Program-made: the position numbers and the translations under genes | NCBI RefSeq assembly: GCF_007990755.1 | Contig: NZ_BJXA01000015.1 | Location: forward strand, 91,149-155,148 | Reading direction: 5' to 3' | Origin: Nocardia ninae NBRC 108245 | GTDB lineage: Bacteria; Actinomycetota; Actinomycetes; Mycobacteriales; Mycobacteriaceae | Length of the DNA: 64,000 nucleotides | Notes under the pieces: model-generated | What the model was told of the DNA's origin: nothing | Seen by the model: only the letters and a program-made list of their open reading frames with translations | Databases searched by the model: none | In this document: positions 40,039 through 58,060 of the stretch, piece after piece | How positions within the stretch are numbered: position 1 is the stretch's first letter | Layout of the letters: every line of letters starts with the position of its first letter

Positions 40039-40482
40039 GTGATTGCTGATCCACAGTTGAATCCTGCTGCGGTCGAGCTCGGTAGCTTTTTTCCGCAGCC
40101 GCCGGACGCCGTGTGGCGGGCGTTGACGGAGCCGGATCTGCTGGAGCGGTGGCTGCTCAGACCGACCGGATTCGTTGCCTCGGTCGGCACACGCTTCCGA
40201 TTCACCGCCTCGGGCGCATCGAACGATGAGATCGTCTGCGAGGTGCTGGCGGCCCGGCCGGGGGAGCAGCTGACGTACAGCTGGCTGCATCCGCAGGCCG
40301 AGCAGCCGGCACGGTGGATTGTCGATTGGACGATACGGCCGCAGGGGCGCGGCACCCGACTTCTGTTGACACAGACCGGTTTCGATATCGAAGACCGTCG
40401 ACAGAAGATGATTCGCAACGCTACGGAGCGAAGTTGGAAGCGTCTCGTTCTGCCGCGACTCGGTGCGGTGATCCACCACTGA
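40039..40482 (+). CDS. SRPBCC (AHSA1-like) domain protein
   Basis: 147 residues of the START/Bet v1-like superfamily: FFPQPPDAVWRALTEPDLLE, RWLLRPTGFVASVGTRFRF, then strand and helix alternation to a C-terminal long helix (ATERSWKRLVLPRLGAV). The fold has a hydrophobic cavity and often binds lipids or polyketides. It starts 30 bp after the acyl carrier gene, so the two probably share the MerR-controlled transcript; a role in handling a carrier-bound acyl chain is inference. Confidence 0.82.
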   Translation: MIADPQLNPAAVELGSFFPQPPDAVWRALTEPDLLERWLLRPTGFVASVGTRFRFTASGASNDEIVCEVLAARPGEQLTYSWLHPQAEQPARWIVDWTIRPQGRGTRLLLTQTGFDIEDRRQKMIRNATERSWKRLVLPRLGAVIHH

Positions 40483-43135: not shown

Positions 43136-43377
43136 CGACTACCAGCGGATTTTTCTACTCGCCCGTGCTGGTTGTCATCGACGAAAGCGACGGCCCGTCG
43201 TCGTTGCTCGGCAGCCAGGAGATCGACTGGAATAACCGAGTTCATTCAGTGGACCGAATTTGCTCGATTCGGGCGGATTCGGGTAGCGGTCTACTCGTGT
43301 GGGGGAACATGGGGTGGGGTCTGATGGGGCGAATGAATTGTATTCGTTGAAAGACGTGGGATATGTGGGTAGCGAAA

Positions 43378-44190
43378 TCAGCGACTATGGGGTGGGTGCA
43401 GCCTGGCTCGGCTGGTCCACGGACAGTGGTGTGCGCGAGCGGGAAATCGGGTTCGGGCGCGGGGGTGCGGGCTACCGCGCAACTGGCGTTGTTCGGCGGG
43501 TTCGAGCTGCGGTTGGCGGGTGGGAAAGTGGTGCTGCCGGTGCATGCGCAGCGGGTGCTCGCCTATCTGGCGCTGCGCAAGATGGCGGGGGAAGAGTGCG
43601 GGCGGCAGGTGCTGGCGGAGCGGTTGTGGGAGAACTCGTCGCCGGAGCGGTCGTCGGCCAGCTTGCGGACGGCGCTGTGGCGGATCCGCCGCGCCGGGCC
43701 CGAGTTGCTGGCGGGGGATGCGGACCGGGTGACGCTGGCGGATCACGTCGAGGTCGACGTGGATCAGTTTCGGCGTCGTGCCGAGGCGATGTTGTCGGGT
43801 GCCGAGCGCACGCCGGCGCACGTGCACATGCTGTGCACCGCGGCCGAGTTGTTGCCCGGCTGGGACGAGGATTGGCTGCTGCTGTGCCGCGAACAGGTGC
43901 GGATGCTGCGGCTGCATACGTTGGAGGCCGTCGCGCGCCGGTATTGCGAGCAGAGCCGGTATCCGCAGGCCATCGACCTGATCCTGCGTGTGGTCGCCGA
44001 GGAACCGCTGCGCGAATCGGCCCAGGCGATTCTCATCGACGCCCACCTGGGCGAAGGCAATGCGGCCGAGGCTCGCAGGCAGTTCGATCTGTTCGCCACC
44101 ACGCTGTGGCGTGAACTCGAGCTGCGCCCGTCCGCAGAACTCGGGCACCGCGTCGGCCTACCCGTGTGCGCCGTGACTACGCGGTCTTGA
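43378..44190 (+). CDS. Short SARP-type regulator (winged helix + BTAD), copy 1
   Basis: Up to 270 residues; the true start may be internal because the first 35 residues are atypical. The OmpR-like DNA-binding part reads AQLALFGGFELRLAGGK, RVLAYLALRKMAGE, SSASLRTALWRIRRAG; the BTAD part follows with WLLLCREQVRMLRLHTLEAV and a final EARRQFDLFATTLWRELEL. It lacks an ATPase. The gene at 45885-46664 is its close paralogue, and both flank the M1-like peptidase gene, suggesting paired control of this cluster. Confidence 0.85.
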   Translation, partial: SATMGWVQPGSAGPRTVVCASGKSGSGAGVRATAQLALFGGFELRLAGGKVVLPVHAQRVLAYLALRKMAGEECGRQVLAERLWENSSPERSSASLRTALWRIRRAGPELLAGDADRVTLADHVEVDVDQFRRRAEAMLSGAERTPAHVHMLCTAAELLPGWDEDWLLLCREQVRMLRLHTLEAVARRYCEQSRYPQAIDLILRVVAEEPLRESAQAILIDAHLGEGNAAEARRQFDLFATTLWRELELRPSAELGHRVGLPVCAVTTRS

Positions 44191-44225
44191 CGCCAACGAC
44201 CACACCTCCGGCGCATGCTGAAACG

Positions 44226-45944
44226 ATGTCGGCCGACTTCACCAACGCGCCTCCTCCGACCAAGGTCGGCGGGCTGCGCGCGGTGCCGATGCACATCCGG
44301 GACCTGCGTGCTGTGGTCACCCTCGACGCCGCGACCGGTACCGGCACCGTCGAGGCGACGCTCGACTACATAGTCGGCCCGCACACCGGATCTCCGATTT
44401 TCGACCTGCGGCAAGCCGTGCAGACCTGCCTGCTCGACGCGGTAAAGCTCGATGTCGCGAAGATCGCCCCGCGTGATGTCGGCGCGGGACCTCACAGTTC
44501 GATCCGGATCATCGGTGTCGAGCAGGCGGCGGGATCGGCGCACAAGCTCAACCTGACCTACCAGCTGGCGACTCCGGACGCCGACCTCGGCGGCGCCTAC
44601 CCGCCGGTGCTGCACGGCTCGAACGGGCGGATCCGCTGGTCGTTCGGCATGTCCGACCTGTTCGCCGGCCGCTATCTCGAAGCGTGGTTCCCCTCGAACC
44701 TGCCGTTCGACCAGTTTCCGTGGACGCTGGAACTACGGATCACCGGCACCACGACCGCGCATTCACTCGTCACCAATGGTTCGGCCACCGTGGTCGGCGT
44801 GCACGCCTGGTCGGTGCGCTTCCCGGACTGGTTCACCACCATGTCGTCGCTGCTCGAACTCCGCCCCTCCGACGCGCTGCTGTTCCGGTCGTCGACCGTG
44901 GTACTGCCGGTTTCGCGGCGGTCGGTGGTGATGGAAACGTGGAAACCTGTTGGCGGGCAGGAGAATTTACCCGCGCTGAACAGTCGCATCGGCACGCTGC
45001 TCGCGGAGAACGAAACCACCTACGGCCCATTCCTGGCCGACCGGTTCGTGTGCTTCTTCCACGGCGCCGGTGGCGGAATGGAATACGCCGGTGCGGCAAC
45101 CACATCCGCGGGTGCGCTCGGCCATGAAGTGTTCCACTCCTGGTTCGCTCGCGGCATCACCCCGGCGGCGCAGTCCGACGGCTGGTGGGACGAGGCGTAC
45201 ACCAGCTTCCGCGATGACGGCGACACCCTGACCGAGCCTTTCGATTTCACGCTGCCACCGGTGGAGCTGTGCTCGCGCAAACCATTTCAGCGCACCACGC
45301 CGGCGTCCGCATACGACGAGGGCAGTCGCTTCTTCCGTGGTGTGGCGCAGCGGCTCGGTGCCGACCGGCTGCGCACGGTGCTGGGGGAGTTGTACCGCTC
45401 TCAACGTGGAACACCGCTCAGCACAGGCGAACTAGAGGCGCATTTGATCGTTCGTTCCGGCGCAACAGATCTCGTGGACGCGTTCCACCGCTTCGTCTAC
45501 GGCTTCACCGAGCCCACCCCGGACGCGCGCATCGAATTCGTCACCGCCCCAGCATTATGGGTGCGCCGCGCCGCCGACGGCGTAACCACACACATCAACC
45601 CGAAAGCCGGACAGGACAGCTGGATTCATGCCCGTGTGCGCAACGGCGCGAAGGCTGGACCGTGCCGCCACTTCGTCGTCACCTTCACTGTCCGGACCAC
45701 GACGACGACACCACCCACCTATCCCACCGACTTCTTTCCGGCACAGACGGCAACAGTAGGTTTCGATCTCGCCCCGGGCCGCTGGCGCACGGTGTCGGCC
45801 CGTTTACCCGCCGCACTGGTGCCCGCACGCGGCACCCGGATATCGATACTGGCGTCGGTACACGCCCGCCGCTCCCATCCGGCGTCAGGCACTCGGGTGC
45901 GGGAGCAGGCGTCGATTGCGCAGCGCGACATGACCGTTGACTGA
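44226..45944 (+). CDS. M1-like gluzincin metallopeptidase
   Basis: 572 residues. GGMEYAG (284-290) matches the GxMEN exopeptidase loop of M1 peptidases with Tyr in place of Asn; GHEVFHSW gives the HExxH zinc site (300-304), and exactly 18 residues later Glu323 in WWDEAY is the third ligand. The N-terminal beta-sandwich and a C-terminal beta domain complete an M1-like build, but at under two thirds the usual length. It has no signal peptide. The Asn-to-Tyr change suggests altered N-terminus recognition. A GTG at 44166 is an alternative start. Its 3' end overlaps the convergent SARP gene by 60 bp. Confidence 0.8.
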   Translation: MSADFTNAPPPTKVGGLRAVPMHIRDLRAVVTLDAATGTGTVEATLDYIVGPHTGSPIFDLRQAVQTCLLDAVKLDVAKIAPRDVGAGPHSSIRIIGVEQAAGSAHKLNLTYQLATPDADLGGAYPPVLHGSNGRIRWSFGMSDLFAGRYLEAWFPSNLPFDQFPWTLELRITGTTTAHSLVTNGSATVVGVHAWSVRFPDWFTTMSSLLELRPSDALLFRSSTVVLPVSRRSVVMETWKPVGGQENLPALNSRIGTLLAENETTYGPFLADRFVCFFHGAGGGMEYAGAATTSAGALGHEVFHSWFARGITPAAQSDGWWDEAYTSFRDDGDTLTEPFDFTLPPVELCSRKPFQRTTPASAYDEGSRFFRGVAQRLGADRLRTVLGELYRSQRGTPLSTGELEAHLIVRSGATDLVDAFHRFVYGFTEPTPDARIEFVTAPALWVRRAADGVTTHINPKAGQDSWIHARVRNGAKAGPCRHFVVTFTVRTTTTTPPTYPTDFFPAQTATVGFDLAPGRWRTVSARLPAALVPARGTRISILASVHARRSHPASGTRVREQASIAQRDMTVD

Positions 45945-46664
45945 ACGCGGCGTGGGTGGCGGCGGCGCGACCATACCGACCCTGCCGAACAGCTCCGGCG
46001 AAGGCCGGATGCTCAGCTCGGTCCAGAGCAGGTCGGTGAACATGCGCAACTGCCTGCGCGCCTCCACCACATTGCCCTCGCACAGGTGCGCTTCGATCAA
46101 CGCCGCCTGCGCCGACTCACGCAGCGGCTCCTCGGCGACCACCGCGAGCATTACATCGATCGCCTCCGGGTAGCGTCCGCGCTCGGCGAGCTTGCGCGCA
46201 TCCACCTCCAGTGCGTGTAATCGCATCTGCCGCAGCTGTTCCCGTGCCAGCAACAGCCAGGTCTCGTCCCAGCCGGGCAGTAGATCGTTGGTGCGCGCCA
46301 GCAAGGCGGCACGGTCACGCGGACAGTCCTGCTGCGCGGCCAGCATCCGCTCGGCGTTCCCGCGGAACTCGTGCACGTCGACCCGCACGTCGGCACCGAG
46401 GCGCACCCGGCCGCCCGCTCCGTGCACCAGCGCGGGGCTGGCCTGCCGGATCCGCCACAGCGCGGTGCGCAGGCTGGCCCGCGAACGATCCGCGGTCGCG
46501 TCGGGCCACAGCCGCTCGGCGAGTACCCCGCGGTCGCAATCGGGTTGGGCGATCTGGTCCAATGCCAAGTAGGCCAGCACGCGGCGCGAATGTTGCGGCA
46601 CGGCAACGTGGTTCGCGTCGACCCGCAGTGCGAATCCGCCGAGCAAACAGATGGCGAGCTGCAT
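45885..46664 (-). CDS. Short SARP-type regulator (winged helix + BTAD), copy 2
   Basis: 259 residues from the ATG at 46664, preceded by GGGAGG. MQLAICLLGGFALRVDANHV, VLAYLALDQIAQPDC and SRASLRTALWRIRQAS align closely with copy 1 at 43378; the BTAD half continues with WLLLAREQLRQMRLHALEVD. It is divergent from the seven-gene run starting at 46783, and the spacer carries 11-bp-phased repeats. It is the best candidate for the cluster's activator. Confidence 0.88.
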   Translation of the reverse strand: MQLAICLLGGFALRVDANHVAVPQHSRRVLAYLALDQIAQPDCDRGVLAERLWPDATADRSRASLRTALWRIRQASPALVHGAGGRVRLGADVRVDVHEFRGNAERMLAAQQDCPRDRAALLARTNDLLPGWDETWLLLAREQLRQMRLHALEVDARKLAERGRYPEAIDVMLAVVAEEPLRESAQAALIEAHLCEGNVVEARRQLRMFTDLLWTELSIRPSPELFGRVGMVAPPPPTPRSVNGHVALRNRRLLPHPSA

Positions 46665-46734
46665 CGAAAGCCTCCCTCGGTCACCGGCCGGTTGTGGCCG
46701 ATCGAGCAAGCGTGCCGACGCGATGCTGCGCGCG

Positions 46735-46773
46735 CGTCAACGCCGCGTCAACGCCGCCCACGCGGCGTTGACG
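46735..46773. promoter_or_regulatory. 11-bp-phased CGTCAACG repeats plus inverted copy
   Basis: CGTCAACG at 46735-46742 and 46746-46753 are exactly 11 bp apart; an inverted CGTTGACG lies at 46766-46773. Together they fill the spacer between the SARP gene and the 75-residue gene. Phased direct repeats are the known SARP operator form; the inverted copy could serve the opposite promoter. Confidence 0.65.
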
Positions 46774-46782
46774 GGAGTTGGT

Positions 46783-47010
46783 ATGGCCGCGCGCGAGGGT
46801 GTTCCGGTGAGTGGACCCGAGAGCAAGACCATCGTGGTGCGGGCCTGGCGTGATCGCGGGCGACTGATCATCCGGGTACTGACGGGTGTTGGCGAGATAG
46901 GCGCCGGACAGGAATGGGTGTTCGCCGATATCGACGCGTCGCTGACCCGCGTCGGCGAGCTGCTCGCCGAGCTGCACGACAATCCCGCGAACGACGAGAC
47001 AAAGCGTTGA
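46783..47010 (+). CDS. 75-residue protein heading the cluster
   Basis: Start ATG 46783 follows GGGAG. The chain reads TIVVRAWRDRGRLIIRVLTG, GQEWVFADIDASLTRVGELL and a charged end. It has a strand-strand-helix feel, no signal peptide and no cysteines. I do not recognise it. Being first in a same-strand run under likely SARP control, it may be a regulatory or chaperone-type component. Confidence 0.6.
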   Translation: MAAREGVPVSGPESKTIVVRAWRDRGRLIIRVLTGVGEIGAGQEWVFADIDASLTRVGELLAELHDNPANDETKR

Positions 47011-47075
47011 CGCTCGCGCACACCGTGGCCGCGCACAGTAATCCGAAACGCCCGTCGTTTGCGGAGGTGACCACA

Positions 47076-49505
47076 ATGCGCAGTGACTCTTACACCGAGT
47101 CTCGCGGTGCTACCGAGGACTATGTTTCGCCCTTCTCCGGGCTCTCACCCTTCGGTGAGGCGGTGGACGAAGCGGTCGAACAGTCGACCGCGGAGTTCGA
47201 CGAGTCGCCGTTCGAGAGCTACTCGTTCACCGAGTCTCCCTTCGGTGAGAGTGCCTATTCGGCGGCCGACGAGCAGTCGCAGCTGGCCACCGAGTTCCTG
47301 GAGGCCTTGCACGACGAGGAGTTCACCGAAGCGCTGGAGCAGCTGCTCGACGAGGGCGCGGCTCGTGCGCTCGCCGACGCGCAGCAGTGGTCGATGACGC
47401 CGTCGGAGGCCGAATGCCGGGAGTCGCTGCAGGAGTGGATCGCGCCGCTGATCACCGAGTGGGAACGCACCATCGACAATTTCGCCGGCGGGCTGGAGAA
47501 CGCCGATCTGCACGGACTCGCCGAGCAGGAACTCGATGAACTGCTCGATTCCCTGGAGACGCCCGGCGCGCTCGGGTCCGAGGTATTCGAGAATTTCCTC
47601 GGCAAGATCGTCCGCAAGGTGAAGTCGGTCATCAAGCAGAAGGTCCGGCAGGCGATCGGGTTCGTGAAGAATCCGGTGAAGGGCGTCATCGGCATCGCCA
47701 AGAGCGGGCTGAAGACCATCAAGAGCGGCCTGCAGACAATCGGCAAGCACTTGATCGGCCCCCTGCTCGCACGGCTGAAGAAGATCGGGCTGTCCCTGCT
47801 CAAAGGGGTGGTCGCCAAGCTGCTGAACCCGCTGACCCGAATCCTGCCCGCCGAGATCCGCCCGCTGGTGCCGATCCTGGCCAAGCGCCTCGGCATCGGT
47901 GAGGCGGCAGATGAAGCGGCGGACGAGGCCGACGAGGGCGCCGACGAATTCGGCACCGCGGCTGAAATGTCGGAGGCCTTCGATCAGCAGCTCTTCGCGA
48001 TGTTCAGCGCCGAAGAATCCGGCGAAGCCGACGAGGCAGCCGCGGACGAGTACGACGAGGAGGTCGATGCCGAAGAGCCGGAACACAATACGGTCGCAGA
48101 GCTGGACGACGCCCGCGCCCGGCTCGCGGCACAACTGAGCGCCTACACCCGGGCCGAGGAGCCGATCGCCGAGATCGAGCAGTTCATTCCCGCGGTGCTG
48201 GCGATCCGGCCGCTGCTCAAGCTGGGGCTGAAAGTCACCGGCGCCCGGGCCAAATTGGTCAATCTGATCGCGCAGCCGCTGGCCAAGCTGATCAAGGGCA
48301 TGGTGGGTCCGGACGCCGCGCGCACCATCGGGAAGATCGCCGGCCAGGACCCGTCGGTGATGATCGCCCGCGCGGTGGTCGGCGTCGGATTCACCGCGCT
48401 CGGCCTGGAAACCGCAGGGCAAGAAGAAGATACGATCCCCGGCGAGGCACTGGCCTCGGCCGTGGAGGCCACCGTGACGCGGGTGCTCGACGAACTGCCG
48501 GACGAGGCTTTCACCGACCCGTTGCAGGTCAGTGCCGCGGTGCAGCGCGCGTTCGCCGAGTCGGCCGCCGCCTACCTGCCGGACCGGCTGCTGCGCGCCG
48601 ACCTGCCGGAACGCGAGACCTCCGAGGAGGGCGGCTTCTGGGTGATGATGCCGCGCTCGACCAAGCCGCGCTACCGATTCCGCAAGTACACCCGGGTTTT
48701 CGCGATGCCGATCCCACGGCAGGTCGCGCGGGCGGTGCGCTGGAACGACGGCGGCACGCTGGAGACGTACCTGCTCGACCGCGGCGTCGACCGCTGGCCC
48801 GTGCACGCGGAGATAGATCTCTACGAGACGCTGCCCGGCACCATGCTGGGCCACCTGACCCGAGACGAAACCCTGCCTGCCGCAGAGCATCCCGGTGCCG
48901 ACGAGTTCCAGCCGCTCACCGCGGAGGCCGCGGGACTGCTGCTCCGCGAACCCGCGCTGGGTCGCCGCCGCAAGGTCGGCACCGCGCCGGGCGCCTACCG
49001 GCCCGTGCCCGGACAGCGGTACTTCCGGGTCCGCGTCGCGAAGCTGCCCGCCCGCAAGGCCCGTCGGCCGCGCAGGCTGACGACGGTCCGCTGGGATCCC
49101 GCGTCGAAGCGCCTCGGTATCGTGGTCAAGTTGTCCGAGCGGCGAGCCCGCGGTTTGCAGGCCCGCCTGCAAAGGGCCGCACCGGCCGGTCAGCGTGATC
49201 TGCCCGCCGTGTTGTCGGCACTGCGTGAGATTTTCCTGCCTCGCCTGCAGTATCGGATCGCCCGGCGGCTGCTGAAAGCGCAAATGGTCACCGATCCGGC
49301 CGCGGCCGCCAAGCTGGCCGGCGAACTGACCGCCGCGACCAGCACCGGCCTGGCCACCTATCTCGCGCAACGCGGTGCCCAATTCGCCGCTGCCGTAGCC
49401 GATCCGGCCGACGGGGTCACCCTGGCGGTGACGTTCACCGGCGTCCAGGCGGACTCGGCGCAACTCCCGGCCCCTGAAGTCGTCGCGACGCCCGGACTGA
49501 AGTGA
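47076..49505 (+). CDS. Large protein with acidic leader and basic amphipathic core, unknown family
   Basis: 809 residues; ATG follows GCGGAGGTGA. Residues 1-95 are acidic and carry four SPF motifs (at 18, 24, 44 and 54), for example ESPFESYSF and ESPFGES. Residues 100-170 are helical and acidic. Residues 175-255 are a Lys/Gly-rich amphipathic stretch without acidic residues (KVKSVIKQKVRQAIGFVK, GLKTIKSGLQTIGKHL). A second acidic block covers about 275-365. The C-terminal half (about 380-809) is folded-looking, with a Gly/Ala helix set and a beta-rich part (YRFRKYTRVFAMPIPRQVAR, YFRVRVAKLPARKARRPRRL). No signal peptide. It may be a scaffold or membrane-active component. Family unknown. Confidence 0.65.
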   Translation: MRSDSYTESRGATEDYVSPFSGLSPFGEAVDEAVEQSTAEFDESPFESYSFTESPFGESAYSAADEQSQLATEFLEALHDEEFTEALEQLLDEGAARALADAQQWSMTPSEAECRESLQEWIAPLITEWERTIDNFAGGLENADLHGLAEQELDELLDSLETPGALGSEVFENFLGKIVRKVKSVIKQKVRQAIGFVKNPVKGVIGIAKSGLKTIKSGLQTIGKHLIGPLLARLKKIGLSLLKGVVAKLLNPLTRILPAEIRPLVPILAKRLGIGEAADEAADEADEGADEFGTAAEMSEAFDQQLFAMFSAEESGEADEAAADEYDEEVDAEEPEHNTVAELDDARARLAAQLSAYTRAEEPIAEIEQFIPAVLAIRPLLKLGLKVTGARAKLVNLIAQPLAKLIKGMVGPDAARTIGKIAGQDPSVMIARAVVGVGFTALGLETAGQEEDTIPGEALASAVEATVTRVLDELPDEAFTDPLQVSAAVQRAFAESAAAYLPDRLLRADLPERETSEEGGFWVMMPRSTKPRYRFRKYTRVFAMPIPRQVARAVRWNDGGTLETYLLDRGVDRWPVHAEIDLYETLPGTMLGHLTRDETLPAAEHPGADEFQPLTAEAAGLLLREPALGRRRKVGTAPGAYRPVPGQRYFRVRVAKLPARKARRPRRLTTVRWDPASKRLGIVVKLSERRARGLQARLQRAAPAGQRDLPAVLSALREIFLPRLQYRIARRLLKAQMVTDPAAAAKLAGELTAATSTGLATYLAQRGAQFAAAVADPADGVTLAVTFTGVQADSAQLPAPEVVATPGLK

Positions 49506-50755
49506 TGGACGCCCGATTCGCCACCGAGACAGCCGCGCTCGCCACCGAAGCTAGGCACTGGCGGCGCGCCTGCGCGGCGCTGGGTGACCTCGAGGTGAGT
49601 GCGTCGCCGGCGGCCTGGCGCGAGCTGGAGTCCTACCTCGGGCTCAGCGTTCGGGCGAGCCTCGGCGGTCAGGCGCGCAGGCTCACCGCGCAGGCAGACC
49701 GGACGATCTTCACGATCAAAGGCGCGACGACCCAGGCCGACCTTGAAACCGCACGCGCGGAACTACTTACGTTACGACGCAGGTACAGCCGGGCCGAGGC
49801 GATGGTCGACTTCTACTGCGACGCGGTGAACACCCGGACGAATCCGCGCCTCGCCGCGGTATTGCGTGGGCTGGACGCCTTGGCCGTGCACAGCATGGAT
49901 CAGGTGTTGCGGCCGTTGGGCATCGATACGCCCTCGGTGCTGACCTACCTCGACAAGGGGATGGGTGCGTCGATTCTGCGGGCCGGTGCACGGCTCTGGG
50001 ATGCTTCGCTGTCGCCGGCCGCCGCCATCAAGATCACGCGGCACAACTTGTGGCAGCCGACCTCGCTGGTGCACGAGACCGGCCATCAGGTTGCCCATTT
50101 GACCGGCTGGACAAAGGAATTGGCGGCCGCACTGCACGCCGCGCTCGCACCGCACAGCCCGATGGCCGCAGCGGCGTGGCAGAGCTGGGCGTCCGAGGTA
50201 GCGGCCGACGTATATGCCTTCTGCTTGCTCGGCTACGCGCCGGTGCCGGCCTTGGCGACCGTGGTGGACGGTCCGTCGAGCCAGGTGTTCCGGATGCCGT
50301 TCGGCGACCCGCATCCGGTCTCGGCGCTGCGCGTGCAGTTCAACGCCGCGCTGTGCCGGGCCTGGTTCGGCCAGGGACCGTGGGACGCGCTCGCCGCGCG
50401 CTGGCAGGCCAGACACCCACTTACGCAGGCTCCTTCGGATGTCGCCGCGATCATGGCGGCGAGCATGCCGCTGCTGCCCGCGATCGTCGAGGTGTGCACA
50501 CGGATGCCGATGCGCGCCTTCCACGGAGTGCCGCTGTCGACGCTCGCCGACCCGCGGCGCGTGTCGCCGGGTGAGCTCACTCGACTGGCCGATCGCGCGG
50601 GGGCTTCGCTGTACACCTCGACCCACCTGCAGCGGGTCGAGCCGATGCGCATCCTGGCGCTGACCGTGCTGCGCGGTCTCGAATCGTCCACCGCGCCATC
50701 GGAGATGGAGACATGGCTGCGACGGATGGGTGGCGGCGACCGCGTCGCCGCCTGA
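49505..50755 (+). CDS. Putative zincin metallopeptidase, new-looking family
   Basis: 416 residues from ATG 49505, whose A is shared with the preceding TGA (ATGA overlap), implying translational coupling; GTG 49502 is an alternative. The first 110 residues are helical and Arg/Ala-rich. The centre carries LVHETGHQVAH (HETGH at 190-194), followed by a Glu/Asp-rich helix (WASEVAADVYAF, Glu231), the order of a gluzincin active site. A gapped third ligand 37 residues after the second His is longer than in M1 or M4. The C-terminal part is helical. No signal peptide. The catalytic call rests on the motif only. Confidence 0.6.
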   Translation: MDARFATETAALATEARHWRRACAALGDLEVSASPAAWRELESYLGLSVRASLGGQARRLTAQADRTIFTIKGATTQADLETARAELLTLRRRYSRAEAMVDFYCDAVNTRTNPRLAAVLRGLDALAVHSMDQVLRPLGIDTPSVLTYLDKGMGASILRAGARLWDASLSPAAAIKITRHNLWQPTSLVHETGHQVAHLTGWTKELAAALHAALAPHSPMAAAAWQSWASEVAADVYAFCLLGYAPVPALATVVDGPSSQVFRMPFGDPHPVSALRVQFNAALCRAWFGQGPWDALAARWQARHPLTQAPSDVAAIMAASMPLLPAIVEVCTRMPMRAFHGVPLSTLADPRRVSPGELTRLADRAGASLYTSTHLQRVEPMRILALTVLRGLESSTAPSEMETWLRRMGGGDRVAA

Positions 50756-50776
50756 ACGCACAGATAGGAGACCGAG

Positions 50777-51313
50777 ATGGATAACGAGCCAGGCAAGGCG
50801 ACGGTGGACGTGGATCAGCTGATCCAGTTGTTCACCGGCGTACTCCAGCAGTACCGGCAACCCGACAGCCCAGAAACGAGCACGCTCCACGACGGCAACG
50901 ACTTGACGCTGTCGATCTTCTCGGAGCTGCAGTACGCGTTGCAATCACGCAACCTCTCGTCCAAAGGGCCGGTGGCGCAGGCGCTGCCCGCGCAGGTGGA
51001 TGTGCAACACAAGATGCTGTTCTTCAAGCGGAGGCTGCCGCGCTATGCGGAGCGAGTCGTGGTCATCCACCACGGCAACATCGCCCCCGAGGTGCACTAC
51101 GTCTACGACCAGGAGAGCAGAGACGGCGGCAACGGCGGCGATTGCGATACGCCGACGACTTTCGACCTCGCGCATCCCCATGAGGCGATCGCCGTGCAGA
51201 TCCAGGACTGCCATGAGCGGATCCGGCTGGTCAGCTTCGTGACGTTCGCGCCGATCGACACCGGTGGCGGTTCCCGAGTCGCCGCGAACACCGTTTCGCC
51301 GCAAGCAATTTAA
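50777..51313 (+). CDS. 178-residue protein of unknown function
   Basis: The ATG follows a plausible AGGAGA. An N-terminal helix (VDVDQLIQLFTGVLQQYRQP) is followed by SIFSELQYALQSRN and a beta-rich half (MLFFKRRLPRYAERVVVIHH, VHYVYDQ, IAVQIQDC, RLVSFVTFAPI) with a Gly/Asp-rich loop containing GGNGGDCD. No signal or membrane segment. No family recognised. It lies 21 bp after the zincin gene and 13 bp before the next, in one transcript. Confidence 0.6.
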   Translation: MDNEPGKATVDVDQLIQLFTGVLQQYRQPDSPETSTLHDGNDLTLSIFSELQYALQSRNLSSKGPVAQALPAQVDVQHKMLFFKRRLPRYAERVVVIHHGNIAPEVHYVYDQESRDGGNGGDCDTPTTFDLAHPHEAIAVQIQDCHERIRLVSFVTFAPIDTGGGSRVAANTVSPQAI

Positions 51314-51326
51314 GGAAGGCAGCGCC

Positions 51327-52643
51327 ATGTTCCGACAGTTGGCTACCAAGCTCCCCCCGCTCACCGGCTCGCTCACGCCGGCCGACGCGGTCTTCACATT
51401 CCATCCCGAGCAGTTGAGCCGATGGCTGGACGAGGTCTGGGCGCAAGGCGGAATCAGCAGCTGGCCCAAGGTCTTCAACCAGACCCAGGTACCGCTCGGC
51501 GACCCGGCCGCCGTCCGGATGACGCAGCTCCCGGACAACCTGATCAGGGAGTCGTTCAAGTCCGGTGTGCACGGGCCGACCACGGGGACACCGCCGTTCA
51601 CTCCGCCACTGGGCTACAACCCGACCACCGACCCGCAGGTGGTGCCGCTCTGGGATCACATGTTCTATGCCTACCTGGTGGAGAGCACCGGCGTCGTCGA
51701 GATCTTCGCGGAAGTGGTGCGGCGCTACGTCGTCGGCGAAACACTGCCCGCGCCCTCGGTGGAAACCATGACCTGGGTGCGTGCCACCGAAGAACTGTTC
51801 TTCCGCGATCCGCCGCTGTTCCGAGTGGGCGGGCTGACCAGTCAGCTGCGGCCGGACGCCCGGGTGAACCGGCGAAATGCGTACTGGCGCATGTTCGGAC
51901 TCGACCTGCCGCATCCCGCACCCGGCGCCGACAGTCAGGCTTGGAAGCGAGACACCGGCGCCGCGAGCAACGTTCGGTTCATCGAGATCTGGAACGAACT
52001 GCTGCGCCAGATCTGGCTCGGTATCGAGAACGAGCGCAACACCTCCGGCTCGAATCCGACCGACGCCAGCTACATCGGATACCTGTGCCAGACCCTCGCG
52101 GAGATGCTGCGGCTGCGCCGCCTCGGCGGGATGCTCTCGCGCGAAGAGTTCAGCTACTCCTGCCTGCTGAACTGGTTCCACCTCACCGTCGACTACGAAA
52201 GCGCGGTGGTGCGCGACCTGAGCGCGAACGCGGGCATCGCGGGCGGCAATCCCGCCGACCGGCTCGCTACCGTCGGTGCCAGGGTGGGCGTCGCGCCCTC
52301 TCGTCAGGCGCGTGAGCTTTTCGAACTCGCCTCCCTGGTGTCGCCGCTGCTGTGGGCGATCGAGCTCGGGGTGTTCGACGAGCAGCCGCAAGCCGAGCTG
52401 CTCTACCGCTCCACCGGGGTGCCGGGGCCCGGACCCGCGCAGACGATGAACCGAATCATCGATCTGTGGCAGTCGGCGACGGGCGAGCGGGTCAAGGACC
52501 TCGCTGTCACCATGCGCCGCAGCACGAACCAGGTCCGGTCCGCGCAACCGGCGAAACTGCTGCCCGCAGGCGTGCTTTCCGGCGCCACCGCACCGGCGGC
52601 ACCGGTGACGAACGGACATCGACGAGTCGCCCCTCGGCTCTGA
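51327..52643 (+). CDS. 438-residue protein of unknown function
   Basis: The ATG follows AAGGAAGG. The chain is rich in Trp, Arg, Leu and Pro: VFTFHPEQLSRWLDEVWAQG, a Pro/Thr loop (GPTTGTPPFTPPLGYNPT), VPLWDHMFYAYLVES, VRFIEIWNELLRQIWLGIEN, EMLRLRRLGGMLSREEF. It looks like a globular helical protein with a Pro-rich tail ending AAPVTNGHRR. No enzymatic motif, signal peptide or membrane helix is seen. I do not recognise it; a structural partner for the enzymes around it is a guess. Confidence 0.6.
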   Translation: MFRQLATKLPPLTGSLTPADAVFTFHPEQLSRWLDEVWAQGGISSWPKVFNQTQVPLGDPAAVRMTQLPDNLIRESFKSGVHGPTTGTPPFTPPLGYNPTTDPQVVPLWDHMFYAYLVESTGVVEIFAEVVRRYVVGETLPAPSVETMTWVRATEELFFRDPPLFRVGGLTSQLRPDARVNRRNAYWRMFGLDLPHPAPGADSQAWKRDTGAASNVRFIEIWNELLRQIWLGIENERNTSGSNPTDASYIGYLCQTLAEMLRLRRLGGMLSREEFSYSCLLNWFHLTVDYESAVVRDLSANAGIAGGNPADRLATVGARVGVAPSRQARELFELASLVSPLLWAIELGVFDEQPQAELLYRSTGVPGPGPAQTMNRIIDLWQSATGERVKDLAVTMRRSTNQVRSAQPAKLLPAGVLSGATAPAAPVTNGHRRVAPRL

Positions 52644-52695
52644 GCCGTTGGGACGCCGAGTCGTTCGCCACCGCGCGATAACGAGGGAGCCTGAT

Positions 52696-55065
52696 ATGAG
52701 TACCGTTGCCGAATCGTCGATCTTCGCCTCGCCCGAATCGACGCCTGATCCCGGTGGGTGGCCCACTCGCGAAGATGTGTTCGCCGAGGAGGTGGGTGAC
52801 ACGGAATACGATGGCGAAACCGGTTGGCGGAACGCGGATTCCGCTACTGAGGTGGGCGAAACCGGTTACGCCGGTGCGGAGTCCAGCGAGACCTACACCT
52901 ACGGAGCCGCTTACGGCCAGGAGGATGGGGATCTCGAAGCCGAGAATGAGGTTGTCTATTTCGAGGATGCTGCTGACCGAGCGGCGGCGGAGGAGGCGGA
53001 CTTCGAAGCCTCGGGCTACGAGTATGCCGGGTACGAAGCGGCTGACTACGAGGATGCTGAGGCAGAAGCTGCGGACTCCGAGTACGGCGGGTACGAAGCC
53101 AGCGGTTACGAGACCGCTGATCCTGAAGCCGCCGGCTACGAGTACGCCGGGTACGAAGCCTCGAACTACGAGGATGCTGAGCCCGAAGCCGCGAGCTACG
53201 GGTACGCCGGATACGAGGCGGCTGACCATGAGGACGCTGATCTCGAAGCCTCAGGCTACGAGAATGCTGACTCCGAAGCCGCGGGCTACGAGTCTGCCGG
53301 CTACGGAGTCGGCGGCTATGAGACGGCCCACTACGAGGAGGCGGACTACGAGAACGCCGACTACGGGGAAGCCGATTACGAGAATGCCGATTACGCGGAA
53401 GTCGATTACGAGGCTGCCGATTACGAGGACTCCCCACCGACCCCGGTGACGCCCGGCCGGTTGATCGTCAAACGGCACCCGCTGCTTCGCACCCACGCGG
53501 GCACCCCACCGGACCTGCTCCTCGAATGGAACGGCATGGTCGACCCCTCGGTGGTCGACGTCGTCGTCCACCTGCACGGCTACGCCGGGCAGGGTGCGGC
53601 CATGAACATCGTCAAGCACAAGAAGCCCATCAGCGGACTGGATTTCACCGACCCCGCCAAGCCGTCGGTCGCCGGGCGCACCACCCCGACGCTGCTGATC
53701 CTGCCGCGCGGCCATCACCAGCCGAAGGGCAATCCGGCGCGATACACATTCCCCGCGCTCACCAAACCCGATGCGCTGCAACGCTTGGTCGACGACGCCC
53801 TGGCTCGATTCGGTGCCGCGACCGGGACCACCGTGCGGCGCAACCGTTTGATCCTGACCGCGCACTCCGGTGGCGGCGCCGCACTGATGGCCATTCTCGG
53901 CCACACCGATCCCGACGAGGTGCACAGCTTCGACGCGCTGTACAACGACCCGAAGGCGCTGATCGCCTGGGCGCGCAAGCGCATGGCGGCCGGCACGGGT
54001 GCGTTGCGTGTGCTGTACCGCCCCGGTGAGGGCACCGCGCGGGCGAGTGAGCGGGTCGCGGCGGCGGTCCGAGGCGCGGCTTCGCCGAACTTCCGAGTAG
54101 AGCGAACACGAGTGCCGCACAACGACATTCCCCGTCGCTTCGGGTGGCAGCTGCTGGCCGACGCCTCCGCCGACTTGCGCGGGGGAGTACTGGCCGGCGA
54201 GAGCAGCGATGAGCTGTGGACTCCGCAAGAAGGCGACGGCGAGTACTGGGGCGAAACCGCCTGGGAAGCAGAGGATTACCTCGGTGAGTCGCCATCGCAC
54301 GAGTGTGGTTGCCGGGGTAAAGAAAGCGAGTCGTCCGAAGCGCCGTGCCCGGCGAAACCCTCGCGCCGCAGCCTCGGAAAATGCAGGCCCGCGCAGGACG
54401 ACTGCAAGCCGGAGGCGCCGTGGAGCGAGATGCAGAAGCGGTTCCGTAAGCGTTGCAGCTTGACCACGCATCGCCTTGACCCCAAATCGGCGATCGACTG
54501 CGCGTGCGCGTTCGGTGATCCCCGCGATGTGGCGATCTTCTCGATGGCGCGCGTGGTGGCTGCGGGCCCGCTCGCGGCGCGGCTGTTCGCCCATTTCCTC
54601 GGCGCCAGCGGCACCGAGGTCACCATCGATGTCGCCGACATGATCAAGCGGTCGGCCGGCGTGCGCGAGAAGATCCGCAAGTCGATGGCGCGCGGCGGCT
54701 CGACCGGCGTGACCCGGATCGAGCAGAGTGAATACCGCGACAGCGAACTGCAATTCGCCTACGGAGCCATCGACTGCGTGCAGTGGCGGGTGCTACCACC
54801 CGTCGCGAAGGATTGGCGCAAGAAGCAAGGCACCCGGATCGAGATCTCGATGCTCGACTACTACGAATTCCATCCCGCCAGGCCGGGTGTCAGCCAATGC
54901 GCGCACGCGGCGTGCGTGGAACTCGTGGCGCGCGGGCAGGCGAAGAACTTCTGGACCAGCGGAAGCGCCGTGGTCACCCTGGCAGACCTCGGGGCGCGCG
55001 CTCCCGCACCGGCACCCGCGCGGCCGAGAGAACGCCGCACTGTGGTCTACCAGAACACTTACTGA
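52696..55065 (+). CDS. Acidic pentad-repeat / alpha-beta hydrolase / unknown C-terminal domain protein
   Basis: 789 residues; ATG after CGAGGGAGC. Residues 1-100 are an acidic leader. Residues 101-245 are exactly 29 five-residue units of the form A-(D/G)-Y-E-x. Residues 255-500 look like an alpha/beta-hydrolase: oxyanion HG at 294-295, nucleophile Ser391 in TAHSGGG, acid candidates D413/D419 and His475 in VPHND. Residues about 540-789 form a separate Cys-containing domain with ELQFAYGAIDCVQWRVLP and ISMLDYYEFHPARPG, a strand-rich pattern reminiscent of secreted toxin or effector domains, but no family is certain. No signal peptide. Confidence 0.65.
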   Translation: MSTVAESSIFASPESTPDPGGWPTREDVFAEEVGDTEYDGETGWRNADSATEVGETGYAGAESSETYTYGAAYGQEDGDLEAENEVVYFEDAADRAAAEEADFEASGYEYAGYEAADYEDAEAEAADSEYGGYEASGYETADPEAAGYEYAGYEASNYEDAEPEAASYGYAGYEAADHEDADLEASGYENADSEAAGYESAGYGVGGYETAHYEEADYENADYGEADYENADYAEVDYEAADYEDSPPTPVTPGRLIVKRHPLLRTHAGTPPDLLLEWNGMVDPSVVDVVVHLHGYAGQGAAMNIVKHKKPISGLDFTDPAKPSVAGRTTPTLLILPRGHHQPKGNPARYTFPALTKPDALQRLVDDALARFGAATGTTVRRNRLILTAHSGGGAALMAILGHTDPDEVHSFDALYNDPKALIAWARKRMAAGTGALRVLYRPGEGTARASERVAAAVRGAASPNFRVERTRVPHNDIPRRFGWQLLADASADLRGGVLAGESSDELWTPQEGDGEYWGETAWEAEDYLGESPSHECGCRGKESESSEAPCPAKPSRRSLGKCRPAQDDCKPEAPWSEMQKRFRKRCSLTTHRLDPKSAIDCACAFGDPRDVAIFSMARVVAAGPLAARLFAHFLGASGTEVTIDVADMIKRSAGVREKIRKSMARGGSTGVTRIEQSEYRDSELQFAYGAIDCVQWRVLPPVAKDWRKKQGTRIEISMLDYYEFHPARPGVSQCAHAACVELVARGQAKNFWTSGSAVVTLADLGARAPAPAPARPRERRTVVYQNTY
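52996..53430 (+). repeat. 29 tandem 15-bp coding repeats (pentapeptide array)
   Basis: In-frame units such as ADYEN, ADYGE, AGYEA, SGYET and ADPEA follow each other without a break for 435 bp, all in register. Position 3 is mostly Tyr and position 4 mostly Glu. The layout recalls pentapeptide-repeat proteins (A-D/N-L-x-x), but with Tyr where Leu/Phe is usual. The DNA repeats are diverged, so the array is old rather than a recent slippage product. Confidence 0.85.
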
Positions 55066-55084
55066 CGCGATCGGAGGCGGAGTC

Positions 55085-56878
55085 ATGACAACCTATGCCG
55101 AGTGGCCTGTCCGCGAAAACTATCCGGGCACTGCCGAATACGACCACGAGGTGGACTCCGAGGACCTCGACGCCGAGGATTTCGGTGACGAGGTGATCGA
55201 CGAGGCCGAGGAGTCCGGTGCGGTCGAACAGCACGAGTTCGACGAAGCCTTCTTCGACGCCGAGGCTTTCCCGTCCGGACTGGTGCTCACCGCCAGACCC
55301 GGCCCGTCGGCCGCCGGTCAAGAGCATTGGGATCCCAACAACACCGGCCTCCCGCTCTATGACACCGGCCCGGAGGTACGCAAGAAGAAGCTGGCGCCGA
55401 ACTTCACCGTCGGTGAACTCGTCAGCAGCGGTGGACGACCCGCCGACCGGGCCCGTATCTCGCCCGCCCTCGTGCGCTGTCTGCAGGCCATCCGCGAGCG
55501 CGCCGGGCGACCGGTGAAGATCAGCTCGGGGTACCGCTCCTGGGCGAGCAACGTCGCCGTGTACCGCGCTCGCGGGAAGAAACCGACGCTCAGCAGGCAT
55601 TGCAGCGGGCAAGCCGCCGACATCAGCATTGCCGGGCTCACCGGGTTACAGATCGCCGAACTCGCGATCGACGCCTGCGGCAATGACATTGCCCTCGGTA
55701 TCGGCGGGAACTTCGCGCACATCGATGTGCGGGGGCGGCCGGACACCTGGACCTATATGTCGGGCAAAGCCAATGCGGCCGCGCTCGCCCATGTGCGGCA
55801 GTATCGCCGAAACCGCAGCGCACCAACGCCTAAGCCGGTCCCAACGCCCACCCCCACACCGACTCGGACGCCCGATCGCGCCGCGGGCGTCGTCCGTCGC
55901 GGCACCTTCACCAAATGCACGACGGGCGAGCAGCCCGGTGCACGGGCGATGGCCGATCAGTGGAAGCGGTTGACCGGGCGGAAGGCGGGCACATTCAACT
56001 GCCGTTCCACCACATTCGGTACCCCGTCGCTGCACGGCGAGGGCCGGGCGATCGATCTGTACGTGAACGCGGCAGACCCGGCGCAACGTGCGCAGGTCGA
56101 CGCTTACCTCGCGTGGCTGCAGGCCAATGCGGTGGAACTGCAAGTGGCGTACATCATCTGGAATCGCAGGCAGTGGGGTTGGCAGTTCCGCGCCAAAGGA
56201 TGGCGGCCCTACGGGGGAAGCAATCCGCACACCGACCACATCCATGTCGATCTCAGCTGGGAAGGCGCACGGACGCCGAGTCCGTTGTTCGCCGGGCCGG
56301 TTCCAGGTCTCGGCGGGAATACCGCACCGACTCCCGTACCGACACCGAAACCCGTTCCGAAGCCGGCGGGACGCATCCCAGCACACGTCGTCGAGTTCGT
56401 ACGGAAGTACCGCCCGCACGCGCAAGCGAACGAAACCCGCAGCCGCATCCCCTGGCTGGTCACCCTCGGCCAGGCCGCGCTCGAAACCGGCTGGGGCGCA
56501 AAAGCCTGCGGAAACAACTTCTTCGGCATCAAGGCGGCACCGAGCCTGCCGGAGTCCCAGCGCAGACTCTGCACGACCACCGAGGTGCACGCCACCCCGA
56601 ACGTGCGGAGCTACCCCGAGGTCGTCTCCGTGACGCCGCGCTCCGACGGCCGCTACACCTACGTCGTGAAGGCCTGGTTCCGCGCCTTCGCTTCGCCGGC
56701 AGCGTCGTTCGACGGCCACGCTCGCGTACTGCTCGCGCCGCGCTACGCCAAGGCCTTCGCGCACACCGCCGATCCCTACGCCTTCGCTCGCGAAGTAGCC
56801 GCGGCCGGGTACGCCACCGAACCCAGCTACGCGGCGACGTTGACCGGCGTCATGCGCCTGATCGAGAAGGTGCCGTAG
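55085..56878 (+). CDS. Three-module peptidoglycan hydrolase without signal peptide
   Basis: 597 residues. Acidic leader (1-65). Module 1 (about 85-240), peptidase M15-like: SSGYRSWASNVAVY, RHCSGQAADI and NFAHIDVRG give the His/Asp/His zinc set. A PTPxP linker follows. Module 2 (about 265-400), an endolysin/extensin-like carboxypeptidase domain: SLHGEGRAIDLYVN and HTDHIHVD. A second Pro-rich linker follows. Module 3 (about 425-597), glucosaminidase: PWLVTLGQAALETGWGAKAC, NNFFGIKA. Together they cut stem peptides and glycan. No Sec or Tat signal is present, so release needs another route, lysis or a carrier. It starts 19 bp after the preceding gene. Confidence 0.85.
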   Translation: MTTYAEWPVRENYPGTAEYDHEVDSEDLDAEDFGDEVIDEAEESGAVEQHEFDEAFFDAEAFPSGLVLTARPGPSAAGQEHWDPNNTGLPLYDTGPEVRKKKLAPNFTVGELVSSGGRPADRARISPALVRCLQAIRERAGRPVKISSGYRSWASNVAVYRARGKKPTLSRHCSGQAADISIAGLTGLQIAELAIDACGNDIALGIGGNFAHIDVRGRPDTWTYMSGKANAAALAHVRQYRRNRSAPTPKPVPTPTPTPTRTPDRAAGVVRRGTFTKCTTGEQPGARAMADQWKRLTGRKAGTFNCRSTTFGTPSLHGEGRAIDLYVNAADPAQRAQVDAYLAWLQANAVELQVAYIIWNRRQWGWQFRAKGWRPYGGSNPHTDHIHVDLSWEGARTPSPLFAGPVPGLGGNTAPTPVPTPKPVPKPAGRIPAHVVEFVRKYRPHAQANETRSRIPWLVTLGQAALETGWGAKACGNNFFGIKAAPSLPESQRRLCTTTEVHATPNVRSYPEVVSVTPRSDGRYTYVVKAWFRAFASPAASFDGHARVLLAPRYAKAFAHTADPYAFAREVAAAGYATEPSYAATLTGVMRLIEKVP

Positions 56879-57292: not shown

Positions 57293-57463
57293 CGCGGCAA
57301 TCTCGGTCTCAGCGGGCCCGGTCGGCCCATGCCGAAGATCATATCCAGCCCGGCTACACCCCGGGCCGACCCGCCCTTCGGCACCCTGGGTTTCATTACT
57401 AAGGCGAAATGACTAGCTCGCCAATAGAATCACCGAGTGGTGGGAGATGAATCAAGAAGTGGA

Positions 57464-58060
57464 ATGACCAACCGACGCGCGGTCATCGTCGGCTCCGCAG
57501 CGGCCGTTGCAGGCGTCGGGGTGGGGGTGGGTGTCGGACGGCTCGCCGAGGCGGACGAGGATCCGTCCACCGTGGAGAGCTCGTTCACGGTCGTCGATCG
57601 GCGCGGCACGCAGCGTTTCTTGCTGGCGACGCAGAAACCGCCGATCATTCTGGGCGGCAAGACCTATCCCGCGCAGACACGGGGCGGTCCGGACGAATGC
57701 TCGGCGCTCGTGTTCAACGACGAGAACGGTGATGAGAAGGGCGGCATCGTCGCCGCCAGTGACGGGGCACTGATCGCGCTCGACTATCCCAACGGGGACG
57801 CTATTCACCTGCAGACCAGCTGGGAGGACAAAGTGGGCGGCGCCGCGCTGGTCATCACGCACATCGGTGATCCGACGACGCCGATCGATGCGGCGAAACA
57901 TCCGCTGGCAGTGCAACTGTCCGCCGACACCGAGGAGGGGACGGCTCTGACACTGTGTGACCCACAAGGGCGGGCGCGGATCAAGTTGCGGGTCGCGATG
58001 GACGGTACGCCGTCCATCGCGATTCTCGACGAGCATGGCGGGGTTGTCAGAGAGCTCTGA
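57464..58060 (+). CDS. Protein with Tat-like leader, unknown function
   Basis: 198 residues. NRRAVIVGSAAAVAGVGVGV is a twin-arginine start followed by a short hydrophobic segment, so export through Tat or a membrane anchor is likely. The mature part is Asp/Gly-rich and beta-rich: TVVDRRGTQRFLL, IILGGKTYPAQ, ALVFNDENGDEKGGIVAAS, ALTLCDPQGRARIKLRV, PSIAILDEHGG, a pattern of short hairpins. No family recognised. ATG 57464 or GTG 57437 may be the start. Confidence 0.6.
   Translation: MTNRRAVIVGSAAAVAGVGVGVGVGRLAEADEDPSTVESSFTVVDRRGTQRFLLATQKPPIILGGKTYPAQTRGGPDECSALVFNDENGDEKGGIVAASDGALIALDYPNGDAIHLQTSWEDKVGGAALVITHIGDPTTPIDAAKHPLAVQLSADTEEGTALTLCDPQGRARIKLRVAMDGTPSIAILDEHGGVVREL

What the first reader, a model, noticed from the sequence alone, without database searches (positions are those of the whole stretch)
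43378..56878. Candidate new system: SARP-switched cluster of signal-less wall hydrolase, zincins and acidic-leader proteins
Seven genes on one strand (46783-56878) have tiny gaps or an ATGA overlap, so they form one transcript, divergent from a SARP gene, with a second SARP and an M1-like peptidase next door. Contents seen in sequence: a three-module peptidoglycan hydrolase, a HETGH zincin-like protein, an alpha/beta-hydrolase with a pentad array, an 809-residue acidic/basic protein and three proteins I cannot place. Three proteins share acidic low-complexity leaders, and none of the seven has a Sec or Tat signal. No sheath, baseplate or holin gene is visible, so it is not a standard contractile system or phage. 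Inference: a co-assembled or co-exported wall-attacking complex.
Basis: partly seen in the sequence, partly recalled or inferred. Interest (0 to 1): 0.88.

Follow-up and report, generated by a model that had tools for sequence, protein, structure and literature searches.

The report
Unknown operon with swappable leader-tagged enzymes
A Nocardia genome carries a switched block of genes, also found together in distant soil bacteria, in which the same unfamiliar core proteins are paired with different wall-cutting or other proteins that share an unusual front end, which suggests an undescribed way of releasing or delivering them.

Summary
In detail: seven tightly spaced genes (46783-56878, +) lie beside a divergent SARP gene and a SARP/M1-like pair. 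The system idea also holds. The core (A, zincin B, small C, D) is kept in order in 17 of 17 type I loci examined, with a SARP gene near in 16 and a payload gene after D in 16. In one draw of 394 class genomes, strong B and D hit the same 9. Two related core types occur on proteobacterial megaplasmids and in actinobacteria. What changes is the payload: M15/glucosaminidase, alpha/beta-hydrolase-like, NlpC/P60, tyrosinase, OmpA, GIY-YIG or amidase proteins. 21 of 23 payload N-termini carry an [ST]PF or WP motif against 16 of 321 other ORFs; 16 of 17 A proteins carry [ST]PF too. Core proteins A-D have only chance-level matches in Pfam, NCBIfam and PHROGs and none in PADLOC. Inference: a module that collects leader-tagged proteins, processes them with B and releases or delivers them. 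Export, target and mechanism are not shown; controlled self-lysis is a serious rival. A by-product: the only two of 325 class genomes with sigma-54 above Pfam's cut-off carry it inside this system.

The parts
43363..44190 (+). sarpA, small SARP-type regulator (DNA-binding region plus BTAD)
   Evidence: BTAD 39.1 bits vs cut-off 22.1; kept in the Nocardia loci L004-L007
44226..45944 (+). M1-like peptidase; accessory, matched in Nocardia and Rhodococcus loci only
   Evidence: HExxH-18-E read in the sequence; Pfam E 0.097, below cut-off; relatives in L004-L008. Start codon is a judgement
45885..46664 (-). sarpB, divergent SARP-type regulator (start is a judgement; the open frame reaches 46709)
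   Evidence: BTAD 50.6 bits vs 22.1; SARP gene near 16 of 17 type I loci; dN/dS 0.083 vs L005
46735..46755 (+). candidate SARP box: CGTCAACGCC twice, 11-bp period
   Evidence: repeat kept in L004-L007 with small changes; a direct 10-mer pair 11 apart in 15 of 20000 shuffles of this gap; one other such pair in the window, near 37230
46764..46773 (-). inverted copy of the same 10-mer
46783..47010 (+). gene S, 75 aa
   Evidence: matched by tblastn in L004-L008; a 72-89 aa ORF in the same place in L029, L032-L034, L040, L041; readable in L010; not seen in L009, L011, L030, L031
47076..49505 (+). gene A, 809 aa: acidic leader with four SPF motifs, lysine-rich amphipathic stretches, C-terminal domain; proposed carrier
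   Evidence: alignments A3, A9; leader motifs; only chance-level family hits
49505..50755 (+). gene B, stand-alone zincin-type metallopeptidase
   Evidence: HExxH and a following W..E...D kept in 20 of 20 homologues printed; profile match to proteobacterial relatives E 4e-34
50777..51313 (+). gene C, 178 aa, fast-evolving, between B and D
   Evidence: dN/dS 0.556 vs L005
51327..52643 (+). gene D, 438 aa, core protein without known family
   Evidence: alignments A2, A10; same 9 of 394 genomes as strong B
52696..55065 (+). gene E, payload 1: leader with WPTREDVF, acidic pentad array (about 52996-53430), alpha/beta-hydrolase-like domain
   Evidence: domain reading is from the HSGGG motif by eye, no Pfam hit
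55085..56878 (+). gene F, payload 2: acidic leader with WPVR, M15_3 peptidase (about 55436-55726), second M15-like stretch (about 56024-56245), glucosaminidase (about 56414-56863)
   Evidence: Glucosaminidase E 9.7e-24, M15_3 E 7.6e-13, M15_4 E 0.003 below cut-off

Best explanation
This is one member of an undescribed, probably horizontally moving gene system. A dedicated activator (here a SARP) switches on one operon. Its constant part (S, A, B, C, D) makes a machine or particle; its variable last genes make proteins whose N-termini carry an address with an [ST]PF or WP motif, often strongly acidic. Proposed working: the leader docks the payload on A (or D), A's amphipathic segments carry it or open the way across the membrane, and the zinc peptidase B trims leaders to free or activate the payload outside the cytoplasm. 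In this Nocardia the freed enzymes would cut peptidoglycan peptides, glycan and probably an ester. Shown: co-conservation, order, payload exchange, shared leader motifs, kept zinc-binding motif, activator linkage. Inferred: docking, trimming, membrane passage, and that the target is another cell.
For: A-B-C-D in order in 17 of 17 type I loci, payload after D in 16, SARP near in 16. B and D hit the same 9 genomes of one 394-genome draw, own genome included; type II Y hits exactly the two genomes with type II B; window B and L028 Y hit the same four of 72,556 plasmids, two of them near-identical. Payload exchange behind one core. Leader counts over all payload genes identified behind type I cores plus L026 and L028: [ST]PF in the first 80 or WP in the first 40 residues in 21 of 23 payloads, 16 of 17 A, 1 of 5 X, 16 of 321 other ORFs of the same loci; net charge -12 or beyond in the first 80 in 12 of 23, 11 of 17, 5 of 5 and 0 of 321; WP[TVLAI][RKQH] in 12 of 13 payloads of the Nocardia-like group and 0 of 321. 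WPxRxDVF is shared by window E and the L008 payload, which has no tblastn match to E or F. Core genes are constrained: dN/dS 0.096-0.112 for A, B, D.
Against: No transport apparatus is recognisable and no N-terminal signal. The strongest internal hydrophobic stretches (Kyte-Doolittle 1.95 in B, 1.61 in D, 1.59 in A) do not make a clear membrane protein. Docking, processing and export were not tested. 4 of 5 X proteins lack [ST]PF, and the two proteobacterial payloads have DPF/EPF with a net basic N-terminus instead. The motifs were chosen after looking, and the pooled sequences are related (several per genus), so the counts overstate independence. L034 has a core with no payload next to D; L029 has no SARP match but two LuxR/AAA regulators. 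D-to-Y homology is weak by profile comparison (E 0.065); A-to-X is modest (E 7e-4). No other gene of the own genome has a recognisable copy of the E leader (next best E 0.53).
Confidence: 0.42

Rival explanations
1. Controlled self-lysis or suicide module: the signal-less enzymes stay inside until A's amphipathic segments breach the producer's own membrane (holin-like), then the wall hydrolases lyse the producer and release its contents. B is a trigger peptidase.
For: No signal peptides by hydropathy; wall hydrolases common among payloads; no known immunity family among the window proteins scanned; distant B relatives lie beside CHAT and STAND-type genes in L057, L058, L039, and published conflict systems carry peptidoglycan-attacking effectors (PMC7159879, passages).
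Against: Tyrosinase, OmpA and GIY-YIG payloads do not fit pure lysis; A's best hydrophobic stretch is only borderline (1.59); no sensor domain was found in the short SARPs.
Confidence: 0.27
2. Cargo-loaded protein compartment: A/X forms an intracellular shell or lipid-associated particle and the leaders are cargo-loading tags; enzymes are stored and released when the cell dies.
For: Same leader type on A and on unrelated payloads; amphipathic and glycine-rich segments in A/X.
Against: No capsid or shell family hit; no structure could be predicted.
Confidence: 0.13
3. Ordinary wall-remodelling or nutrient-scavenging operon of the producer, with enzymes leaving by a nonclassical route.
For: F matches wall-hydrolase families and E looks like an ester hydrolase by eye.
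Against: Rare and patchy: D in 2 of 40 relatives (own genome included), 9 of 394 class genomes (own included); B in 1 of 396 of the phylum draw, the own genome; payloads change type between genera.
Confidence: 0.12
4. Effector cassette of a contractile injection (eCIS/PVC) system with the tail genes elsewhere.
For: OmpA and glucosaminidase domains are listed as PVC toxins, and alpha/beta-hydrolases among polymorphic toxins (PMC3482391, passages).
Against: Sheath family PF04984 in 2 of 12 carriers examined, none in the own genome; no PVC-type metallopeptidase family hit in B.
Confidence: 0.04

Closest known systems
PVC/eCIS toxins with N-terminal PVC-metallopeptidase (PMC3482391)
   Same: A metallopeptidase paired with widely varying C-terminal domains, OmpA and glucosaminidase among them; often no immunity gene (passages)
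   Different: Here the zincin is a separate gene without the HExxHxxQ pattern; 10 of 12 carriers have no sheath match
Polymorphic toxin systems (PMC3482391)
   Same: Common front end, exchanged C-terminal domains
   Different: No known trafficking domain or immunity family recognised in the window proteins; the front end is a short low-complexity leader
Broken-hairpin toxins (PMC12419801)
   Same: Signal-less toxins of many kinds proposed to use a shared domain for externalisation (passages)
   Different: That domain is a C-terminal beta-hairpin; here an N-terminal leader plus a multi-gene core
NTP-dependent conflict systems of multicellular bacteria (PMC7159879, PMC8195603)
   Same: Some peptidoglycan-attacking effectors (passages); distant B relatives beside CHAT/STAND-type genes
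   Different: No NTPase, CHAT or effector-associated domain hit in the window core proteins
Glucosaminidase hydrolases such as GsmA and FlgJ
   Same: F's C-terminal module matches
   Different: Far below the equivalog cut-offs (95.1 of 240 bits for GsmA) and fused to M15 domains and the leader

Membership tests
SARP regulators (sarpA, sarpB) | BTAD domain | tested here: met
   39.1 and 50.6 bits vs cut-off 22.1
SARP regulators (sarpA, sarpB) | OmpR-like DNA-binding domain in front of BTAD | tested here: inconclusive
   No Pfam hit for it at E 0.1; sarpB residues 19-240 align weakly to AfsR in NCBIfam, E 0.07
SARP regulators (sarpA, sarpB) | Direct-repeat operator with 11-bp period in the target promoter | tested here: inconclusive
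   Repeat present; that SARPs use such repeats is recalled; binding untested
Zincin metallopeptidases (B) | HExxH plus downstream glutamate ligand | tested here: met
   20 of 20 homologues printed; that this glutamate is a ligand is inferred
Zincin metallopeptidases (B) | Zincin fold | not testable with these tools
   structure prediction switched off; no PDB sequence match up to E 1
PVC-metallopeptidase toxins | HExxHxxQ-E domain N-terminal to the toxin in one chain | tested here: not met
   B is a separate gene and lacks Q at that place; definition from PMC3482391 passages
Contractile injection systems | Sheath protein in the genome | tested here: not met
   none in the own genome; 2 of 12 carriers
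Polymorphic toxin systems | Exchange of C-terminal toxin domains behind a constant front | tested here: inconclusive
   Payloads exchanged behind a shared short motif leader; that they are toxins is not shown
Polymorphic toxin systems | Known trafficking domain or repeat | tested here: not met
   no such Pfam hit in E or F
Polymorphic toxin systems | Immunity protein | tested here: inconclusive
   no known immunity family hit in C, D or G, but C is fast-evolving and unassigned
Phage or phage-derived lysis cassette | Homologues in phage genomes | tested here: not met
   B only: none in 50,697 phage records, none confirmed in IMG/VR. F's hydrolase domains do match phage endolysin families
Known anti-phage defence systems | PADLOC model match | tested here: not met
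   0 of 10 proteins at E 0.01: A-F of the window and four of other loci

The most novel reading that the evidence does not exclude
A new, self-contained protein release or delivery module, shared by Actinomycetota and Pseudomonadota. Proteins are addressed by an [ST]PF/WP leader, gathered by an amphipathic carrier (A/X) and freed by a stand-alone zincin. Each lineage carries its own strict switch with it: SARP in type I, a sigma-54 activator in type II, including the sigma-54 gene itself where the module sits in actinobacteria, which otherwise lack one.
Probability: 0.33. Interest if true: 0.9.

Novelty: categorically new. Interest (0 to 1): 0.73.

Why it matters
If true, bacteria have another way to get cytoplasmic enzymes out of the cell, with an address tag that can be read from sequence, so that many orphan hydrolases, tyrosinases and nucleases could be assigned a destination. 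It may also explain why rare actinobacteria hold a sigma-54 factor: in the sample searched, both such genes over the cut-off sit inside this system. Even if the module turns out to lyse its own cell, the operon is a conserved, regulated unit whose core families are unnamed in the libraries searched.

Tried and rejected
Rejected: chance gene neighbours (exact co-occurrence); phage origin of the core (B only tested); contractile system; known defence system. Hits not used: tape-measure families for A (E 0.06-0.07), trigger factor for A (E 0.044), and, on E's low-complexity array, DotG (E 0.0011), phrog_15350 (E 3.5e-7, unknown function) and Decapeptide (E 0.05). G302 (E 6e-5) is a false hit: the frame there reads as a serpin by eye and does not return with profile A8. 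D against Y alone is weak; I treat Y as a probable D relative because position and motif order agree. A search for A on plasmids gave nothing. The phylum draw with profile A8 found only the own genome, 1 of 396; the first look scored few candidates per genome there and, so sensitivity is limited. S was checked only through its L033 counterpart, in Pfam (no hit); C was not searched against PDB.

Led nowhere: structure prediction and hence fold search; a sigma-54 promoter scan gave two strict matches in seven loci, one about 670 bases before the X start of L026, the other facing another gene (0 in twelve control loci). Literature searches for the system returned no paper whose title, abstract start or inspected passages describe it; one search was on sigma-54. 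That is a limited claim: open-access PMC papers only, seen as listings. Six papers were looked into by passage search; none was read in full.

One search is an earlier, smaller count (A 13 of 14, payload plus X 11 of 23, background 13 of 286) and agrees. The payload set leaves out L036's amidase, an unassigned 211-residue ORF in L035 and the type III loci.
Full report
What is in the window. The genome is a Nocardia: the operon genes are 87-99.5% identical to N. suismassiliense. Seven + strand genes, S-A-B-C-D-E-F (46783-56878), have gaps of 65, -1, 21, 13, 52 and 19 bases. sarpB is divergent; sarpA and an M1-like peptidase gene lie beyond it. A, B, C and D have no family in Pfam, NCBIfam or PHROGs beyond chance-level hits and none in PADLOC. 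Profiles of A, B and D find no relative among PDB sequences (no hit for B; best E 0.81 for D and 0.45 for A, taken as chance). F is a wall hydrolase with M15 and glucosaminidase domains; E has an acidic pentad array and a probable alpha/beta-hydrolase domain.

It is a conserved unit. One scan of genome contigs with B found 8 loci, in four Nocardia, Rhodococcus, Streptosporangium, Arthrobacter and Planctomonas. In all eight, A, B and D stay together with a SARP gene near. A draw of 394 class genomes gave 14 with B at E <= 1e-3, own genome included; the nine strongest are exactly the nine with D in the same draw. I fetched the neighbourhoods of the 13 other genomes; eight are type I. With the window and the eight named loci that makes 17 type I loci. 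A, B, a 106-253 residue ORF in C's place and D are in order in 17 of 17; a SARP relative lies in the fetched flank in 16 (not L029); a payload gene follows D in 16 (not L034). The L008 payload runs off its contig. L003, a partial copy from G008, was not counted. The loci are not independent: five are Nocardia, five another genus, two a third. C is conserved by place more than by sequence. B of the Arthrobacter locus is 66% identical to the window's, that of Planctomonas, of the same order (recalled), 45%; with the patchy spread (2 of 40 relatives, own included) this suggests horizontal transfer. No tree was built.

Two further types. Window B also hits four of 72,556 plasmids; Y, the large protein beside that B, hits the same four. 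A type III B query hits seven plasmids, these four and three more. The rhizobial and Paraburkholderia megaplasmid loci (L026-L028) and two actinobacterial ones (L035, L036) form type II: X (acidic leader plus glycine-rich stretch), B and Y, in L036 in the order B, sigma-54, X, X, Y. An aminotransferase-like gene follows in L028 by Pfam and in L026 and L035 by eye. Payloads are assigned in L026, L028 and L036. In the 394-genome draw Y occurs in exactly two genomes, G316 and G259, the two with type II B. B of types I and II are homologous (E 4e-34), A and X modestly (E 7e-4), D and Y weakly (E 0.065) but with matching motif order. Type III (L037, L056) has an acidic X, B and two or three other proteins. 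More distant B-like zincins stand beside CHAT or STAND-type genes, with no X seen (L057, L058, L039).

The payload changes. Pfam assigns M15 and glucosaminidase (window, L009, L010; M15 only in L011), PG_binding (L008; a caspase-like region follows by eye), NlpC/P60 (L029), PG_binding with tyrosinase and DUF7868 (L030, L031), OmpA (L033; L032, L040 and L041 are alike by N-terminus), PG_binding with GIY-YIG (L026), PG_binding with DUF2272 and glucosaminidase (L028), and Amidase_2 (L036). In L009, L010 and L011 the E- and F-like modules are one protein of 814, 1026 and 1333 residues.

The shared leader. Over all payload genes identified behind type I cores plus L026 and L028, [ST]PF in the first 80 or WP in the first 40 residues occurs in 21 of 23; the other two, the proteobacterial ones, have DPF or EPF. 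It occurs in 16 of 17 A proteins (the other, L030, has TPF at residue 108 behind a far-upstream called start), 1 of 5 X proteins and 16 of 321 other ORFs of the same loci. A net charge of -12 or beyond in the first 80 residues is found in 12 of 23 payloads, 11 of 17 A, 5 of 5 X and 0 of 321. WP[TVLAI][RKQH] is in 12 of 13 payloads of the Nocardia-like group (L006 F has WPVP) and 0 of 321. Window E and the L008 payload share WPxRxDVFAxEV though L008 has no match to E or F. I read this as an exchanged address tag. The motifs were chosen after looking at the sequences, and relatives are pooled, so the counts describe rather than test.

The switch. The sarpB-S gap holds CGTCAACGCC twice at an 11-bp period and once inverted; the window has 5 copies against 0.51 expected, three of them here. 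A direct 10-mer pair at that period arose in 15 of 20000 shuffles of the gap; across the window one other place has such a pair. It is kept in L004-L007 with small changes; L008 and L010 show none by the same rule. Type II loci instead carry a sigma-54 activator gene: by Pfam in L027, L028, L035 and L036, in L026 by its GAFTGA motif read by eye. In the two actinobacterial ones a sigma-54 gene lies in the locus: in G259 next to B, in G316 about 1.9 kb before B, directly upstream of X. Of 325 class genomes 5 match Sigma54_DBD at E <= 1e-3 and 2 pass the cut-off, these two; in an overlapping, hand-picked set of 26 only these two match, while same-genus genomes G302 and G041 do not. Published surveys call sigma-54 nearly absent from Actinomycetota (PMC12316311: 4 of 173, one misclassified; PMC3162934; passages). 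L035 also has a SARP gene.

How it may work. B keeps HExxH and a downstream E...D in 20 of 20 homologues printed, so it is probably an active zinc peptidase. A, B and D are under strong constraint (dN/dS 0.096-0.112), C under little (0.556) (one species pair, window and L005). None of the seven window proteins has an N-terminal signal by hydropathy; internal stretches in B, D and A are borderline. I favour leader-dependent docking, leader trimming by B and release through or with A; controlled self-lysis is the main rival and is not excluded. Without structures and experiments I put the delivery reading at 0.42 and the reality of the conserved system at about 0.95. The mended counts did not change these odds.

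Novelty. No paper found describes these genes together (searches listed under Tried and rejected; open-access library, listings and passages only). It does not meet the tested definitions of contractile systems, PVC toxins or known defence systems, and shares with polymorphic toxins only the exchange principle. I rate it categorically new as an assembly, with the warning that a fold comparison could still tie A or D to a known family.

Noticed in passing
L036 7555-8907 (-) and L035 5784-7076 (+): Sigma-54 factor genes in two actinobacterial genomes, both inside type II loci of this system; the only 2 of 325 class genomes over Pfam's cut-off.
   Followed up: yes
L057 8746-10167, L058 8764-10152, L039 9412-10680: Distant B-like zincins beside CHAT proteins, a phospholipase D-like protein or large STAND-type ATPases, with no A/X or D seen.
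   Followed up: partly
window 38838-38847 and 40119-40128 (-): Two further exact copies of the 10-mer CGTCAACGCC, away from the SARP promoter; meaning unknown.
   Followed up: no
L026 16056-16805, L027 13535-14335, L056 15431-16231: A similar small amidohydrolase gene near type II and type III loci (Pfam-confirmed in L027 only, the others alike by eye); role unknown.
   Followed up: no
window 57437-58060 (+): Gene with a twin-arginine-like, hydrophobic N-terminus just downstream; of the loci searched with it, matched in L004 only, so not counted as part of the system.
   Followed up: partly
C-termini of X proteins in L026, L027, L028, L035: A recurring C-terminal GxW[VI]R motif followed by a hydrophobic strand, in 5 of 5 aligned X proteins; use unknown.
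   Followed up: no
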